This document shows, piece after piece, positions 22,450 through 27,059 of a DNA stretch of 35,815 nucleotides. Position 1 is the stretch's first letter, and every line of letters starts with the position of its first letter. Under the pieces are notes generated by a model. The model ran no database searches, was not told the DNA's origin, and was given only the letters and a program-made list of their open reading frames with translations. The stretch lies in NCBI GenBank assembly GCA_017634275.1, contig JAGBNQ010000054.1, forward strand, positions 1 through 35,815, given 5' to 3'. Both the position numbers and the translations under genes were made by a program. Source of the DNA: Ruminococcus sp. (GTDB lineage: Bacteria > Bacillota > Clostridia > Oscillospirales > Ruminococcaceae).

Positions 22450-22507
22450 TACGTCCGCCTTCGGCGGACACCTTAATTATTAATTATTAACTATTAATTA
22501 TTAATTT
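22450..22507 (-). repeat. Hairpin-plus-heptad repeat over the aspS stop codon
   Basis: On the plus strand the hairpin GTCCGCC-TTC-GGCGGAC (22453-22469) is followed by ACC and five in-phase heptads TTAATTA, TTAATTA, TTAACTA, TTAATTA, TTAATTT (22473-22507). The last heptads encode the final residues and stop codon of aspS. Confidence 0.8.
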
Positions 22508-24263
22508 TAATGTGCAGCTCGTCAAGCTGTGCCTGGTCTACCTCGGCAGGGCACTGGCTCATAAGCTCCGATGCGTTTTGTACCTTCGGGAAGGCTGTTA
22601 CATCTCTGAGGCTCTGTGCGCCGCAGATTATCATGGCTATTCTGTCAAGACCTATGCCCATGCCGCCGTGCGGAGGTGCTGCGTATTTGTACGCATCAAC
22701 AAGGAAACCGAATTTCTGCTCTATCTCCTCCTTGCCCATGCCGAGCAGCTCGAACATCTTCTCCTGCAATGCGCAGTCGGTTATTCTCATAGAGCCCGAT
22801 GAAAGCTCAACGCCGTTTAATACTAAATCCCAAGCCTTAGCCCTTACCTTTGCAGGGTCGCTCTCTAAGTATTCGATGCACTCCTCCATAGGCATTGTAA
22901 ACGGGTGGTGCATAGCCAGCCACTTGCCGCTCTCGTCATCATACTCAAAGAAGGGCATTTCTGTTATCCAGAGGAAGTTGTGCTTGCTCTCATCAATAAG
23001 CTCAAGTCTCTTGCCCATTATAAGCCTGAGTGCGCCGAGTGTGGGGAGTGTGACCTTGTCCTTGTCGGCAACTATTATAACTACGTCGCCCTTCTGCGCG
23101 CCGACAGCCGAGAGCATCTGCGAAAGCTCGCCGTCCTTCATAAACTTGTTAAAGGAACAGCTCGGTGCGTCATCTACCCACCTTACATAAGCAAGCCCCT
23201 TAGCACCTATTCCCTTAGCGTGTTCTGTGAGCTTGTCTATCTCTTTTCTTGTGTAGACCGATGCGGCATTTTTAGCAACAACAGCCCTTACCGAGCCGCC
23301 GTTTTCAACTGCCCCCCTGAATACGACGAAATCCGTCTTTCCTGCCCAGTCGGAAATGTCCTGAATCTCCATGCCAAAGCGTGTATCGGGCTTGTCGGAG
23401 CCGTAGCGGTTCATAGCATCGGCAAATGTCAGCCTCGGCAGCGGCAGAGTTATGTCCTCCCCGAGGATCTCCTTAAAGAGCCTGCTTACAAAGCCCTCAA
23501 CGCACTGCTGGATATCCTCCTCGTCAACGAATGACATCTCTAAGTCTATCTGAGTAAACTCGGGCTGTCTGTCAGCTCGCAGGTCTTCATCGCGGAAACA
23601 TCTTGCAAGCTGAATGTAGCGGTCAAAGCCCGATATCATCAAAAGCTGCTTGTATATCTGCGGTGACTGGGGCAGTGCATAGAACTTGCCTGCGTGAACT
23701 CTTGACGGCACAAGATAATCCCTCGCACCCTCGGGGGTGGATTTCATAAACATAGGTGTTTCTATCTCGATAAAGTCATTCTCATAGAAATACTCTCTTG
23801 CGACCTTTGCAATGTTGTGCCTTGTTATTATGTTGTTTTGCAGTTTCGGGTTTCTAAGGTCAAGGTAGCGGTATTTGAGCTTAAGCTCCTCATTTACCTT
23901 GTCGGAGTTAGTCACCTCAAAGGGCGTAGTTTCCGCGCGCGAAAGAACACGCAGGTCTTTGACATGGATCTCTATCTGTCCTGTTTTGAGCTTGTCATTA
24001 ACGCTCTCGCGCTTTTTAACATCGCCCTTTACCATAAGCACATCTTCAGCCCTTACAGTCTGCGCTTTTGTGAATATATCTCTGTCAGTTTCATCATTAA
24101 ATGTAAGCTGAACAAGCCCCGTTCTGTCGCGCAGGTTGATAAAGAGCAGGTTTCCTATATCTCTTACTCTGTCAGCAAAGCCGCAGACTACTACCTCCTG
24201 CTCATCATTGGGCACTTCACCGCAGTAGTGAGTCCTTTTGAGCCCTTTCATCGTGTCATTCAT
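22494..24263 (-). CDS. aspS: Aspartate--tRNA ligase
   Basis: This class IIb synthetase charges tRNA-Asp in the cytoplasm. With the start at 24263 it has 589 residues, normal for the bacterial type with the GAD insertion domain. An OB-fold anticodon-binding domain begins at EVVVCGFADRVRDIGNLLFINLRDR. Motif 2 is FRDEDLRADRQPEFTQIDLEMSF and motif 3 is GGMGIGLDRIAMI. The longer frame adds 34 residues unlike the family, whereas AAAGGAAG lies 8 nt before the ATG at 24263. I see no T-box leader. Two toxin/antisense modules lie immediately upstream, and no strong promoter is evident between them and aspS. Confidence 0.97.
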   Translation of the reverse strand: MNDTMKGLKRTHYCGEVPNDEQEVVVCGFADRVRDIGNLLFINLRDRTGLVQLTFNDETDRDIFTKAQTVRAEDVLMVKGDVKKRESVNDKLKTGQIEIHVKDLRVLSRAETTPFEVTNSDKVNEELKLKYRYLDLRNPKLQNNIITRHNIAKVAREYFYENDFIEIETPMFMKSTPEGARDYLVPSRVHAGKFYALPQSPQIYKQLLMISGFDRYIQLARCFRDEDLRADRQPEFTQIDLEMSFVDEEDIQQCVEGFVSRLFKEILGEDITLPLPRLTFADAMNRYGSDKPDTRFGMEIQDISDWAGKTDFVVFRGAVENGGSVRAVVAKNAASVYTRKEIDKLTEHAKGIGAKGLAYVRWVDDAPSCSFNKFMKDGELSQMLSAVGAQKGDVVIIVADKDKVTLPTLGALRLIMGKRLELIDESKHNFLWITEMPFFEYDDESGKWLAMHHPFTMPMEECIEYLESDPAKVRAKAWDLVLNGVELSSGSMRITDCALQEKMFELLGMGKEEIEQKFGFLVDAYKYAAPPHGGMGIGLDRIAMIICGAQSLRDVTAFPKVQNASELMSQCPAEVDQAQLDELHIKINN

Positions 24264-24294
24264 TTTTATTACTTCCTTTCGGTTTAAATATCTA

Positions 24295-24420
24295 TTGACA
24301 TTTTTATTATTTCGTGCTATAATGTAATCAACAAAGAGGTGCCTGCGGTAAGCGGTCTCCTCCAAATGGTTTTATCAAAAATGATAGTCGCCTTATGTGG
24401 AAGTCAGGCGGCTATCTTTT
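24295..24420 (+). ncRNA. Predicted antisense (antitoxin) RNA, module 1
   Basis: A full-consensus promoter (TTGACA 24295-24300, 17 bp, TATAAT 24318-24323) drives a predicted RNA of about 90 nt from about 24330. It ends at the hairpin GATAGTCGCCT / AGGCGGCTATC (24383-24416) followed by TTTT. The first 37 nt (about 24327-24366), including GAGGTGCCTGCGG and CGGTCTCCTCC, are identical in module 2. The RNA converges on and overlaps the 3' end of the toxin mRNA, as in txpA/RatA-type systems. No ribosome site or reading frame is present in it. Confidence 0.65.
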
Positions 24421-24498
24421 ATTGTTGTATATTTCAACAATCAGAGCAATGATATCGGTTATCAGAATAAGTAATGTTAGTACCTCAACTGCCGTCAT
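24412..24498 (-). CDS. Small hydrophobic type I toxin-like peptide, module 1
   Basis: This 28-residue peptide begins MTAVEVLTLL, continues as an uninterrupted hydrophobic helix with one Asp and ends EIYNNKR. It is very like the short holin-like (Hol-Tox/TxpA-type) toxins of Firmicutes, which begin MTVxExL and insert into the membrane. AGGAGGTGAG (24505-24514) is a perfect ribosome site. CCTCC just upstream pairs with GGAGG, so the site is in a hairpin in the mRNA. It has its own consensus promoter and faces a convergent antisense RNA. The call rests on size, sequence pattern, conservation with module 2 and genetic layout. Confidence 0.7.
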   Translation of the reverse strand: MTAVEVLTLLILITDIIALIVEIYNNKR

Positions 24499-24553
24499 TT
24501 TACGCTCACCTCCTTTTCAGGAGGAAGATTTGACCGCCTACGCTATGTGCAAG

Positions 24554-24593
24554 CACCTATGTGTATTATACCATAGGTGTTTTACTTTGTCAA
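24554..24593 (-). promoter_or_regulatory. Toxin promoter with palindrome around the -10 box, module 1
   Basis: On the minus strand TTGACA (24588-24593) and TATAAT (24565-24570) have 17-bp spacing. CACCTATG and CATAGGTG (24554-24561, 24572-24579) are exact complements flanking the -10 box. The arrangement is the same in module 2. Confidence 0.8.
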
Positions 24594-24605
24594 ACATCTG
24601 CATTC

Positions 24606-24730
24606 TTGACAAATAAATCTTTTTATGTTATAATGTAATCAACAAAGAGGTGCCTGCGGTAAGCGGTCTCCTCCAAAGTAGTGTTATTTTTCAATAAACC
24701 GTCTTATTGGGAGTAAGGCGGTTATTTTTT
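24606..24730 (+). ncRNA. Predicted antisense (antitoxin) RNA, module 2
   Basis: The promoter is TTGACA (24606-24611), 17 bp, TATAAT (24629-24634). A predicted RNA of about 90 nt starts near 24641 and ends at AACCGTCTTA / TAAGGCGGTT (24697-24723) with ATTTTTTATT after it. The 5' half is identical to that of module 1, while the 3' terminator half has diverged in step with the toxin gene it overlaps, keeping base pairing. Confidence 0.65.
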
Positions 24731-24805
24731 ATTGCAGTTTTCGAGTATTATCCCGATAATGTTAGTTATTAAAAGAAGTAAAGTAAGTACCTCTATAACC
24801 GTCAT
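24722..24805 (-). CDS. Small hydrophobic type I toxin-like peptide, module 2
   Basis: This 27-residue peptide begins MTVIEVLTLL and ends ENCNKK, with a hydrophobic middle of Leu and Ile. It shares MTxxEVLTLLxLIT with module 1. The ribosome site AGGAGGTGAG lies in the same CCTCC/GGAGG hairpin, and the 47 nt of leader from the ribosome site outward are identical in the two copies. The stop codon lies in the stem of the shared bidirectional terminator. Its promoter starts 8 bp after the end of the gene at 24907-25392. Confidence 0.7.
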   Translation of the reverse strand: MTVIEVLTLLLLITNIIGIILENCNKK

Positions 24806-24857
24806 TTCTGCTCACCTCCTTTTCAGGAGGAAGATTTGACCGCCTACGCTATGTGCA

Positions 24858-24899
24858 GACACCTATGTGTATTATACCATAGGTGTCTTTTTTTGTCAA
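24858..24899 (-). promoter_or_regulatory. Toxin promoter with palindrome around the -10 box, module 2
   Basis: On the minus strand TTGACA (24894-24899) and TATAAT (24871-24876) have 17-bp spacing. GACACCTATG (24858-24867) and CATAGGTGTC (24878-24887) form a 10-bp perfect inverted repeat centred on the -10 box. Confidence 0.8.
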
Positions 24900-24906
24900 A
24901 CTGCCG

Positions 24907-25392
24907 CTATAGGCTTTCAATAAACGCCCTTAATACCTTTTTCTTGCCCTTGTCAAAAAAGAGTATGAACACCCCGAGGGCAAGCAGAACAAGTCCGCTT
25001 ATGCACGCCGCCGTGTTGTCAAGCGAAAGTGCCACAAGCGAGAAAAGCGCCGTTAAGATCACCCAGAAAGCCCCGAAAATGTATGCCGAGAGCGGCTTTC
25101 TGAAATGCCCCGAAATTTTCGTGCCCCTGCCGCTTTTTTCAAGTCTGCCGTAAAAGCCGAGTGACCCTGCATCGCGTTTTCCTGCCTCGTGGTAGAAGAC
25201 AGAGAACCTGTCCTCACCGCTGCGGCACCCGTAGAAAACGGACTGCGTTTTGTATTTCTTTATAAATTTTGAGTTTGCCATAACATTAGCGCTCGGCCGC
25301 TTTTGTATCATTTCGCCGTCAAGCCGCCTTGCTATGCGCTTTACCCCTGCCTCGCTCTCATGCTCAAAGGATATCGGAATAATTATCAGCAT
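24907..25392 (-). CDS. Small membrane protein with two C-terminal helices
   Basis: This 161-residue protein has no recognised family. The first 100 residues are basic and soluble (VKRIARRLDGEMIQKRPSANVMANSKFIKKYKTQSVFYGCRSGEDRFSVFYHEAGKRDAG). Two membrane helices follow (about 103-122 and 128-147), and the end is KKKVLRAFIES. The start ATG overlaps the stop of the zinc-ribbon gene by 1 bp, so these two and hisS form one transcript. The soluble part has an alternating charged/aromatic pattern suggesting a small beta domain. Its function is unknown. Confidence 0.7.
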   Translation of the reverse strand: MLIIIPISFEHESEAGVKRIARRLDGEMIQKRPSANVMANSKFIKKYKTQSVFYGCRSGEDRFSVFYHEAGKRDAGSLGFYGRLEKSGRGTKISGHFRKPLSAYIFGAFWVILTALFSLVALSLDNTAACISGLVLLALGVFILFFDKGKKKVLRAFIESL

Positions 25393-25697
25393 TATTCCTT
25401 GTCCTTGTAGTCGTCGGGGTCATAGGGCTTTGAGTTTATCCTTATCTCGCCGCCTGCCAAGGGGTTTGCAAGCATTCCGTAGATAGTGCCGCACATAGCG
25501 CACCTGAACTGGTGGAATATCCTGCCGCTGTAGAATTTTCCGTCCTTATCCATTACCTCGTCAAGAGGACAGGTCTGATAGATCATCTCTATATTTCCCT
25601 GTCTTAGCATATTCTCCGCTGCATTTACCGCCATCATATATTCAAGCGGATTGTGAAACTCCACAAGCGGAATGTTTTCGCATATAGGGCATCTCAT
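25392..25697 (-). CDS. Small zinc-ribbon-like protein
   Basis: The 101 residues contain CPIC at the N-terminus (Cys3, Cys6) and CAMC near residue 68, which together could bind one zinc ion as a zinc ribbon. Between them is an acidic helical region (FHNPLEYMMAVNAAENMLRQGN). The C-terminus is Pro/Asp-rich (KPYDPDDYKDKE). It starts 1 bp after the stop of hisS and overlaps the next gene by 1 bp. A link to translation is suggested only by this tight coupling; no family is recognised. Confidence 0.7.
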   Translation of the reverse strand: MRCPICENIPLVEFHNPLEYMMAVNAAENMLRQGNIEMIYQTCPLDEVMDKDGKFYSGRIFHQFRCAMCGTIYGMLANPLAGGEIRINSKPYDPDDYKDKE

Positions 25698-25698
25698 T

Positions 25699-27009
25699 TT
25701 ATATCAGTCCCTCCGTATCTATTCCTTCAACTATGCTTGCCATCAAAAAATCGCTAAGGCGCTCGGCAAAGCTGTCATCTATCACAAAAGCGGTCTGCTC
25801 GCCCGTCTGCATATTCTTGATGTTTACCTGCCCCTGCTCTATCTCGTTGTCGCCTAAGACCAAAACGAATTTTGCGCCTATCTTGTCGGCATATTTCATC
25901 TGTGCCTTAAGCGAGCGCCCGATAAGGTCATATTCTGCGAAAATGCCGTAGTCGCGCAGCTTTGCTATCATGCCTGTTGCATACCTTGCCGCATTGTCGC
26001 CCATAGGTGCAATGTAAAGCTCGCAGCCGGAGGGCTTTTCAAACTCAACGCCCTGGCTTTCCATTGTGAGGATAAGCCTTTCAAGTCCCATTCCAAAGCC
26101 CAAAGCAGGGGTAGATGCACCGCCCAAAGTTTCTATAAGCCCGTCATATCTTCCGCCGCCGCAGACAGTTCCCTGCGCGCCGATATCGGTGGTGATAAAT
26201 TCAAAAACAGTCTTTGTGTAGTAATCAAGCCCTCTTACTATCTTCGGGTTTATAGCGTAGTCTATACCCATAGCCCCAAGGTTTTGCTGAAGTTCATCAA
26301 AATGCCCCTTGCAGTCATCACAGAGGTAATCAAGTATCACTGGCGCGCCCTCGGCGATCTTTGAGCATATGGGTGACTTGCAGTCGATTATCCTCATCGG
26401 GTTTTTCTCTAATCTTTCCTGACAGGTCTCGCAAAGCTCCGCCTTGTGTGGGGTAAAGTAATCAACAAGCGCCTTGTGGAAATCCGCCCTGCAATTTTTG
26501 CAGCCTATAGAGTTTATGTTAAGCTGTATCCCCTGCAGCCCCATTCTGTCGATAACGCTCTTAGCAAGTGCGATGATATCGGCATCAGCCCTTGCATTCT
26601 GCGCACCTATCATCTCGCAGCCGAACTGGTGGAATTCTCTCAGCCTTCCTGCCTGCGGCTTTTCGTGCCTAAAGCATGAGAGAATGTAGAAAACCTTCTG
26701 CGGAAAGCCGTCATTTAAAATGCCGTTTTCTATTATCGCCCTTATCGTTCCTGCCGTGCCCTCGGGTCTTAGGGTAAAGGTCGAGTCACCCGTTGCGGAA
26801 ACGGTATACATCTCCTTTTGCACAACGTCCGTAGTATCACCCACAGAGCGGACAAAAAGCCCCGTATCCTCAAAGGTAGGAACTCTTATCTCCTTAAAGC
26901 CGAACTGCTCGGCAGTTTCCTTAGCTACGCGCTCAACGGTATGCCATTTATATATCTGCGCAGGCGTTATATCCTGCGTACCCTTAGGTCTTTTTACAGT
27001 CAAAGCCAT
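25699..27009 (-). CDS. hisS: Histidine--tRNA ligase
   Basis: This class IIa synthetase charges tRNA-His. With the start at 27009 it has 436 residues. KRPKGTQDITP is the usual N-terminus, RPEGTAGTIRA and FRHEKPQAGRLREFHQFGCEMIG cover motif 2, LDYYTKTVFEF and GGGRYDGLIETLGG are the histidine-specific motifs, and the C-terminal domain is the anticodon-binding fold. Cys-rich pairs (CKNC, CETC, CDDC) in the insertion domain resemble a metal site found in some clostridial HisRS. An earlier ATG at 27042 lacks a ribosome site, whereas AAAGGAC precedes 27009. It leads a unit with two small genes. Confidence 0.97.
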   Translation of the reverse strand: MALTVKRPKGTQDITPAQIYKWHTVERVAKETAEQFGFKEIRVPTFEDTGLFVRSVGDTTDVVQKEMYTVSATGDSTFTLRPEGTAGTIRAIIENGILNDGFPQKVFYILSCFRHEKPQAGRLREFHQFGCEMIGAQNARADADIIALAKSVIDRMGLQGIQLNINSIGCKNCRADFHKALVDYFTPHKAELCETCQERLEKNPMRIIDCKSPICSKIAEGAPVILDYLCDDCKGHFDELQQNLGAMGIDYAINPKIVRGLDYYTKTVFEFITTDIGAQGTVCGGGRYDGLIETLGGASTPALGFGMGLERLILTMESQGVEFEKPSGCELYIAPMGDNAARYATGMIAKLRDYGIFAEYDLIGRSLKAQMKYADKIGAKFVLVLGDNEIEQGQVNIKNMQTGEQTAFVIDDSFAERLSDFLMASIVEGIDTEGLI

Positions 27010-27059
27010 TATTTTACGTCCTTTCAAGAGATATTTGCGCATAAAGCGCTTATTTTACT

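What the first reader, a model, noticed from the sequence alone, without database searches (positions are those of the whole stretch)
24295..24899. Tandem pair of type I toxin/antisense-RNA modules between the hisS cluster and aspS
Two units of about 300 bp each carry a 27-28 residue hydrophobic peptide gene on the minus strand and a convergent, promoter-driven RNA of about 90 nt on the plus strand that overlaps only the toxin 3' end. All four promoters have near-perfect boxes with 17-bp spacing. The peptide genes differ by roughly a third, while the toxin leader (47 nt) and the first 37 nt of the antisense RNA are identical, so selection seems to act on the RNA parts. Short reading frames this small are usually missed by annotation. 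Two copies raise the question of cross-talk: the identical antisense 5' ends would not discriminate, but the diverged 3' overlap could.
Basis: partly seen in the sequence, partly recalled or inferred. Interest (0 to 1): 0.85.

Follow-up and report, generated by a model that had tools for sequence, protein, structure and literature searches.

The report
Leader-mimicking type I toxin-antitoxin pair
Two tiny back-to-back gene cassettes in a gut Ruminococcus each appear to encode a membrane toxin and an antisense RNA that keeps it silent, and the antisense RNA looks like a copy of the toxin message's own front end, a pattern found in many relatives.

Summary
In detail: two convergent units with four perfect sigma-70 promoters and 28- and 27-aa hydrophobic peptides. 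The genome has four more units; 7 of 7 genus genomes have them. Related peptides occur in 32 of 396 family, 31 of 394 order and 9 of 391 class genomes sampled. Type I toxin-antitoxin is the best reading: peptide dN/dS about 0.12; antisense promoter perfect in 63 of 72 units, toxin promoter in 30.

Sequences change between genera, pairing is kept, and the bias is strand-specific: 76 G-U against 6 A-C changes in 48 units, 29 against 10 in 20 further units. Hol_Tox loci of other orders show it in 16 of 21 tested, control places in 0 of 93.

Proposed mechanism: leader-3'UTR pairing eases opening of the hairpin hiding the Shine-Dalgarno site; the antitoxin occupies the 3'UTR and keeps it shut, as in BsrG/SR4. 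Direction and toxicity are untested.

The parts
24295..24323 (+). antisense promoter, unit A (TTGACA-17-TATAAT)
   Evidence: 12 of 12 with TG
24330..24423 (+). antisense RNA A (ends inferred): leader-like 5' part, anti-SD UCUCCUCC, terminator hairpin 24383-24416 and U-tract
   Evidence: (model hit 24329-24420, but this unit is in the model's training set)
24337..24363 (-). 3' arm of the long-range helix in toxin mRNA A (complement of antisense 5' end)
24412..24498 (-). toxin peptide A, 28 aa
   Evidence: family dN/dS
24509..24524 (-). SD-sequestering hairpin A, CCUCCU-GAAA-AGGAGG
24519..24558 (-). 5' arm of the long-range helix in toxin leader A, including anti-SD
24565..24593 (-). toxin promoter A
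   Evidence: 12 of 12 with TG
24551..24582 (.). inverted repeat (dyad) spanning the -10 of toxin promoter A
24606..24634 (+). antisense promoter, unit B
   Evidence: 12 of 12 with TG
24641..24733 (+). antisense RNA B (ends inferred), terminator 24697-24723 plus U-tract
   Evidence: (training-set member)
24648..24674 (-). 3' arm of the long-range helix in toxin mRNA B
24722..24805 (-). toxin peptide B, 27 aa
   Evidence: family dN/dS
24815..24830 (-). SD-sequestering hairpin B, CCUCCU-GAAA-AGGAGG
24825..24864 (-). 5' arm of the long-range helix in toxin leader B, including anti-SD
24871..24899 (-). toxin promoter B
   Evidence: 12 of 12 with TG
24858..24887 (.). inverted repeat (dyad) spanning the -10 of toxin promoter B

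Best explanation
Each unit is a chromosomal type I toxin-antitoxin module with a leader-mimicking antitoxin. Supported by sequence and comparison: (a) two strong convergent promoters; (b) a conserved hydrophobic peptide ending in lysines under purifying selection; (c) a leader hairpin that hides the Shine-Dalgarno (SD) site; (d) an antisense RNA whose 3' end is the complement of the toxin 3' end and whose 5' end has the same sequence as the toxin leader; (e) hence a leader-3'UTR helix in the toxin strand whose letters change between genera while pairing is kept. Inferred: the toxin mRNA reads past the central hairpin. The SD hairpin forms first and blocks early translation. Once the 3'UTR is made it pairs with the leader, anti-SD strand included, which makes the SD easier to open. 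The antitoxin RNA, a copy of the leader, takes the 3'UTR first, so the leader falls back on its SD hairpin, and the long duplex is a substrate for decay. Loss of the antitoxin frees the message and the peptide damages the membrane. The stated confidence is for the module with (a)-(e); given that, I put about 0.55 on the opening direction.
For: Promoters. Peptide conservation; dN/dS 0.08/0.63 over the 18 closest pairs of 18 sequences. Leader-3'UTR duplex in 48 of 72 units (the rest dropped for broken or long leaders, odd UTR length or a poor toxin promoter): mean -44.6 kcal/mol with its own 3'UTR, -31.2 with others', -20.0 with shuffled tails; toxin strand more stable than its complement in 47 of 48. 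Leader against antisense changes: 76 keep pairing as G-U, 6 would be A-C; 42 units favour G-U, 4 A-C, 2 tie. 34 distinct outer helices of 9-14 bp in the 48 (runs taken from the predicted duplexes). Second set of 20 units: -42.1, -27.2, -21.6; 16 of 20 by strand; G-U 29, A-C 10. SD opening cost: 5.8 full length, 8.6 truncated, 9.0 shuffled tail, 8.6 with the 3'UTR blocked. Antisense-strand terminator in 34 of 48, toxin-strand in 9 of 48. BsrG/SR4 precedent: SR4 binds the 3' part of helix P1 and extends the SD stem from 4 to 8 bp (PMC6562991, passages and one section).
Against: No transcript, toxicity or binding data. Own 3'UTR is the best of 48 in only 21 of 48 units, because relatives share sequence; non-cognate pairs also favour the toxin strand (-31.2 against -27.6), so about half of the 6.8 kcal strand difference of cognate pairs may be composition. 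RNAalifold gives a small covariation term (-0.73); its five helix-core pairs never change on both sides. At equilibrium the SD stays mostly paired in both states (mean unpaired 0.18 full, 0.15 truncated); opening is dearer full length by >= 1 kcal in 2 of 48. 9 of 48 units have a toxin-strand terminator at the central hairpin, which would remove the 3'UTR. The anti-SD of the antisense also fits the toxin SD, with a like G-U bias (18 against 2), so SD blocking may be enough. Units share ancestry, so counts are not independent. 7 of 26 genus loci have no intact peptide.
Confidence: 0.8

Rival explanations
1. Same module, opposite direction: the leader-3'UTR helix locks the full-length mRNA in an inert, antitoxin-resistant form, and 3' trimming activates it, as in hok/Sok and AapA/IsoA.
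For: Long-distance 5'-3' interactions with this role are documented (PMC6733600, passages). Full-length folds keep the SD closed.
Against: The 3'UTR partner is SD-like and pairs with the anti-SD, so pairing releases rather than covers the SD; opening is cheaper by >= 1 kcal full length than truncated in 38 of 48. In AapA the far partner is an anti-SD.
Confidence: 0.25
2. par/Fst-like module: the helix has no role, and the antisense acts by kissing at the central hairpin and then covering the SD with its anti-SD.
For: Convergent promoters, antisense anti-SD complementary to the SD (mean -12.1 kcal/mol), par anatomy in PMC7472228 (passages).
Against: Antisense:SD pairing is nearly the same for other units' antisense (-12.1 against -11.6, better than the row mean in 26 of 43), while anti-SD:3'UTR is more specific (-12.7 against -9.4, 36 of 43) (43 of the 48 units could be parsed). 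It does not explain why the first 10 or so nt of both RNAs match and change together.
Confidence: 0.2
3. Regulatory leader of the next gene: peptide, hairpin and antisense tune expression of aspS, mnmG, rsmG or the radical SAM gene, and the peptide is a leader peptide, not a toxin.
For: In 16 of 21 genus rows a co-oriented gene starts about 5-31 nt past the antisense -35 (L024, its row being misplaced), 2 more are followed by another unit. The only 12-of-12 minus-strand promoters in the 1 kb above aspS are the toxin promoters. aspS, hisS, MnmL, MnmG and RsmG confirmed by NCBIfam.
Against: Outside the genus the longest downstream ORF is on the same strand in 12, opposite in 35 and absent in 4 of 51 units (crude ORF calls). 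Units above different genes encode like peptides, and those above aspS are not aspartate-rich. Tandem copies and broken copies.
Confidence: 0.08
4. The inverted-repeat likeness of the two 5' ends is only a DNA relic (gene conversion or terminal repeats of a mobile element) with no RNA role.
For: Tandem duplications exist (L066, L068, L070).
Against: A DNA process is strand-neutral, but changes are 76 to 6 and 29 to 10 in favour of G-U on the toxin strand. The -10 dyad, in contrast, shows 5 to 4.
Confidence: 0.05

Closest known systems
bsrG/SR4 (B. subtilis type I module, Rfam RF01412)
   Same: Antitoxin binds the toxin mRNA 3' part including one strand of a main helix; SD held in a short stem that tightens on antitoxin binding (PMC6562991, passages and one section). 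Weak Rfam echo on both units, 19.5 and 17.5 bits, E 0.023 and 0.079 in a 701-base search.
   Different: Far below the gathering score of 55. Here the leader, antisense and 3'UTR change together over many genera.
Hol_Tox, putative holin-like toxin (Pfam PF16935)
   Same: Short hydrophobic peptide with lysine end. L113, which has the same layout, passes the cut-off (33.3 over 23.3), and Hol_Tox loci of other orders show the leader-3'UTR pairing in 16 of 21.
   Different: Window peptides score 12.5 and 13.4, below the cut-off; 10 of 29 family peptides match weakly, best E 0.035.
par/Fst of pAD1
   Same: Convergent RNAs, SD stem-loop, second complementarity near the SD (PMC7472228, passages).
   Different: par uses direct repeats; here the RNAs have like, not complementary, 5' ends. 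The PXXXG(C) motif named in that paper's legend is absent by eye.
timP/TimR (Salmonella)
   Same: Full-length mRNA active only after a long-range structural switch that the antitoxin prevents (PMC11228461, abstract and discussion).
   Different: A pseudoknot within the 5'UTR there; leader with 3'UTR here.
aapA/IsoA and hok/Sok
   Same: 5'-3' long-distance pairing in the toxin mRNA (PMC6733600, passages).
   Different: There the far strand hides the SD; here it pairs with the anti-SD.

Membership tests
Type I toxin-antitoxin | small hydrophobic peptide gene with SD | tested here: met
Type I toxin-antitoxin | own-promoter antisense RNA complementary to the toxin mRNA | tested here: met
   sequence level only: promoter perfect in 63 of 72, terminator in 34 of 48
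Type I toxin-antitoxin | peptide toxic, antisense neutralises | not testable with these tools
   needs expression tests
Hol_Tox PF16935 | score over Pfam cut-off 23.3 | tested here: not met
   12.5 and 13.4; relative L113 33.3
bsrG/SR4 (RF01412) | Rfam gathering score 55 | tested here: not met
   19.5 and 17.5 bits
bsrG/SR4 (RF01412) | antitoxin covers the 3' strand of a 5'-3' helix and tightens the SD stem | tested here: inconclusive
   helix supported; SD effect only in folding energies
par/Fst | direct repeats giving complementary RNA 5' regions | tested here: not met
   5' regions are alike, not complementary, apart from the anti-SD
par/Fst | shared bidirectional terminator | tested here: inconclusive
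   antisense strand 34 of 48, toxin strand 9 of 48
hok/aapA-type locked mRNA | the distant 3' strand is an anti-SD that hides the SD | tested here: not met
   the distant strand is SD-like and pairs with the leader's anti-SD
hok/aapA-type locked mRNA | activation by 3' processing | not testable with these tools
   needs RNA 3'-end mapping

The most novel reading that the evidence does not exclude
Across Clostridia, Hol_Tox-like peptides are controlled by an antitoxin RNA that impersonates the toxin's own leader. The leader can either seal the SD or pair with the 3'UTR, and the antitoxin wins the 3'UTR. This would be non-enzymatic 'structural processing' of toxin mRNAs in Gram-positives. In this Ruminococcus genus the cassettes have also been built into tRNA and rRNA modification and tRNA-charging operons, so the same switch may set expression of the next gene.
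Probability: 0.35. Interest if true: 0.8.

Novelty: new variant of a known kind. Interest (0 to 1): 0.62.

Why it matters
Some Gram-positive type I toxin mRNAs seem not to be cut to become active, and the TimP authors name such systems (par, txpA/RatA) as candidates for a structural switch instead (PMC11228461, discussion). Here such a switch has a testable form, conserved over many genera, with both strands of the helix and the competing RNA known letter by letter. It also gives 'putative holin-like toxin' genes of the class a likely antitoxin partner.

Tried and rejected
Rfam at gathering threshold: nothing here, only two tRNAs elsewhere in the window. NCBIfam: no match for the window peptides; relatives only far below the PepG1 and ComI cut-offs. 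PADLOC: weak 2TM effector hits only, two families matching 2 and 1 of 29 peptides. tblastn of one relative's peptide (L029), E <= 1, in phages and plasmids: no match, so no mobile carrier was seen with that query. Three peptide strings in the paper library: none. The papers listed gave no description of this family in their listings or in the passages read; the library lacks most subscription papers. The Clostridia review does not name Ruminococcus but cites an older in silico search that proposed short membrane peptides with charged tails as type I candidates (PMC6563280, passages). 'holin-like toxin' occurs in 13 papers; one reports an unannotated Clostridium copy found by start-site mapping, with no use of the word toxin-antitoxin (PMC9045289, passages); another lists phage holin-like toxin among small membrane proteins (PMC10903887, passages). 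RNAalifold on the 37-row alignment finds the helix core, SD hairpin and central hairpin (17 pairs, 6 with changes on both sides, none of these in the helix core) but not the outer 5' helix, which MAFFT does not align. A first terminator script missed stems that run into the T-tract and was replaced. The dyad over the toxin -10 as an RNA hairpin against read-through: 19 of 67 units, no strand bias (5 against 4), left open. Co-orientation with the next gene as a general rule: rejected outside the genus.

Full report
What is there. Window 24295-24899 carries two units between the hisS cluster and aspS. Both genes are confirmed by NCBIfam. Each unit has a minus-strand promoter, a leader of about 60 nt, a 28- or 27-aa peptide, a central hairpin, about 50 nt more, and a plus-strand promoter facing back. 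All four promoters are 12 of 12 with an extended TG.

How widespread. The own genome, a 58.65% complete assembly, holds four more units on contig C15. All 7 genus genomes searched have units. Peptide profiles find relatives in 32 of 396 family genomes at E <= 0.01, 31 of 394 order genomes and 9 of 391 class genomes at E <= 0.001; each is an even sample of a larger group. The class hits are the own genome, two of its family, and six of other orders. Read by eye, four of those six (G802, G885, G924, G986) have the layout described here; the hits in G757 and G931 do not show it. Named records put close relatives in Ruminococcus MAGs, including a goat omasum assembly. That the class is Clostridia is recalled, not looked up.

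Is it a gene. Among 18 intact genus coding sequences, the 18 closest pairs give dS 0.63 and dN 0.08; all pairs together give pS 0.71 and pN 0.22. Pairs are not independent. With the antisense RNA as bait, 26 loci at E <= 1e-3 appear in the genus (18 of them trained the model, 150 candidates were scored per genome). By my reading have an intact frame. The other 7 do not: two are split by a repeat element, one is frameshifted, and four have a deleted, truncated or missing frame. Intact copies are therefore the rule. Toxin loss with the antisense kept is what a harmful gene would show.

The antisense RNA. Its promoter is perfect in 63 of 72 units, the toxin's in 30 of 72 (both are best sites in a search region). 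Its terminator uses the complement of the last codons, mostly lysines, as U-tract. At the stricter threshold a terminator is scored for 34 of 48 units on that strand, 9 of 48 on the toxin strand at the same hairpin, and 10 of 48 on the toxin strand beyond the antisense promoter; shuffles give under 1 in each. This suggests that toxin mRNA often runs through the antisense region; no 3' end was measured.

The main finding. The antisense 5' end has the same sequence as the toxin leader. On the toxin strand this makes the 3'UTR complementary to the leader. Of 72 units, 48 were clean enough to test. With its own 3'UTR the leader pairs at -44.6 kcal/mol on average, with other units' at -31.2, with shuffled ones at -20.0. 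Its own 3'UTR is the best of 48 in 21 units. The toxin strand is more stable than the complementary strand in 47 of 48; non-cognate pairs show part of this bias too, -31.2 against -27.6. Aligned without favour to either strand, leader and antisense differ by 76 changes that keep a G-U pair in the toxin mRNA, 6 that would break it as A-C, and 39 transversions, beside 1279 matches. The outer helix is 9-14 bp in 34 different sequences. A second set of 20 of the 28 loci L092-L119, picked by eye for a readable unit, 15 of them of other families, gives -42.1, -27.2 and -21.6, with G-U 29 and A-C 10, own 3'UTR best in 14 of 20, and toxin strand better in 16 of 20; one of the 20 (L109) has no good toxin promoter. 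These counts share ancestry, and RNAalifold's covariation term is small.

Wider still. Pfam Hol_Tox was found in 16 of 196 class genomes, 14 over the cut-off, all outside the window's order, and in the controls B. subtilis and Lactococcus lactis, 2 of 14. Of the 24 loci, 21 had a readable frame near the hit. In 16 of 21 the leader and 3' region pair at z <= -4, against 0 of 93 control places in the same loci, lowest z -3.64. In two of the five that fail the frame runs on, so the stretch tested was misplaced; one is not a convincing small gene; two reach -2.4 and -2.9. The toxin strand is the more stable in 18 of 21.

How it may work. The SD is closed by a hairpin, often with a GAAA loop. Opening six SD bases costs 8.6 kcal/mol in a message cut at the central hairpin, 5.8 in the full message and 8.6 in the full message with its 3'UTR blocked. 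A shuffled 3' end gives 9.0. So leader-3'UTR pairing eases opening and the antisense should cancel that. The effect is moderate and the SD stays mostly closed at equilibrium. The closest worked-out case is bsrG/SR4, where SR4 pairs with the 3' part of the main helix and the SD stem grows from 4 to 8 bp. The antisense could also cover the SD directly; that match is less specific to its own unit. I put about 0.55 on the opening model given a type I module.

Cross-talk. The two window antisense RNAs share 37 nt exactly. Predicted duplexes are -186.9 and -171.7 kcal/mol with their own messages and -114.8 and -122.8 with the other's. Cross-talk is likely.

Context. In the genus, 16 of 21 unit rows are followed within about 5-31 nt by a co-oriented gene start, 2 by another unit, and 3 (L027, L028, L038) by neither (L024 read). 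On C15 the order is MnmL-unit-unit-TatD-linked radical SAM-unit-MnmG-unit-RsmG. An aspS relative was found in 6 of 7 genus genomes, and in these 6 a unit lies directly above it (L024's own frame is broken). Outside the genus co-orientation is not the rule: 12 same, 35 opposite, 4 none, by crude ORF calls.

Noticed in passing
window 24551-24582 and 24858-24887; 19 of 67 units: Inverted repeat centred on the toxin promoter -10, arms changing together, in 17 units of this genus plus L062 and L065. 12 of the 19 have a co-oriented ORF ending within 80 nt upstream, against 11 of the 48 without it. No G-U bias (5 against 4), so an operator or an anti-read-through hairpin are both possible.
   Followed up: partly
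L021 2730-6677; window 22494-27042: Units sit in all three gaps of MnmL, TatD-linked radical SAM, MnmG, RsmG and between the hisS cluster and aspS; the only 12-of-12 promoters within 1 kb above aspS on its strand are the toxin promoters.
   Followed up: partly
L039 1612-1800; L038: A repeat of about 180 nt with inverted ends splits the toxin frame in two genomes (G004, G001).
   Followed up: partly
L026 2713-2793, L030, L032, L040: A hairpin insert of about 80 nt at one site in the leader of four units in three genomes; a DNA search at E <= 0.001 finds it only twice, both in units of G001, the others being too diverged.
   Followed up: partly
L050: An insert of roughly 130 nt splits the antisense 5' region of one unit.
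   Followed up: no
3' ends of the peptide genes (window 24412-24426, 24722-24736): The terminal lysine and arginine codons (AAAAAGAAA in many units) double as the U-tract template of the antisense terminator, so codon choice there may be fixed by the RNA.
   Followed up: partly
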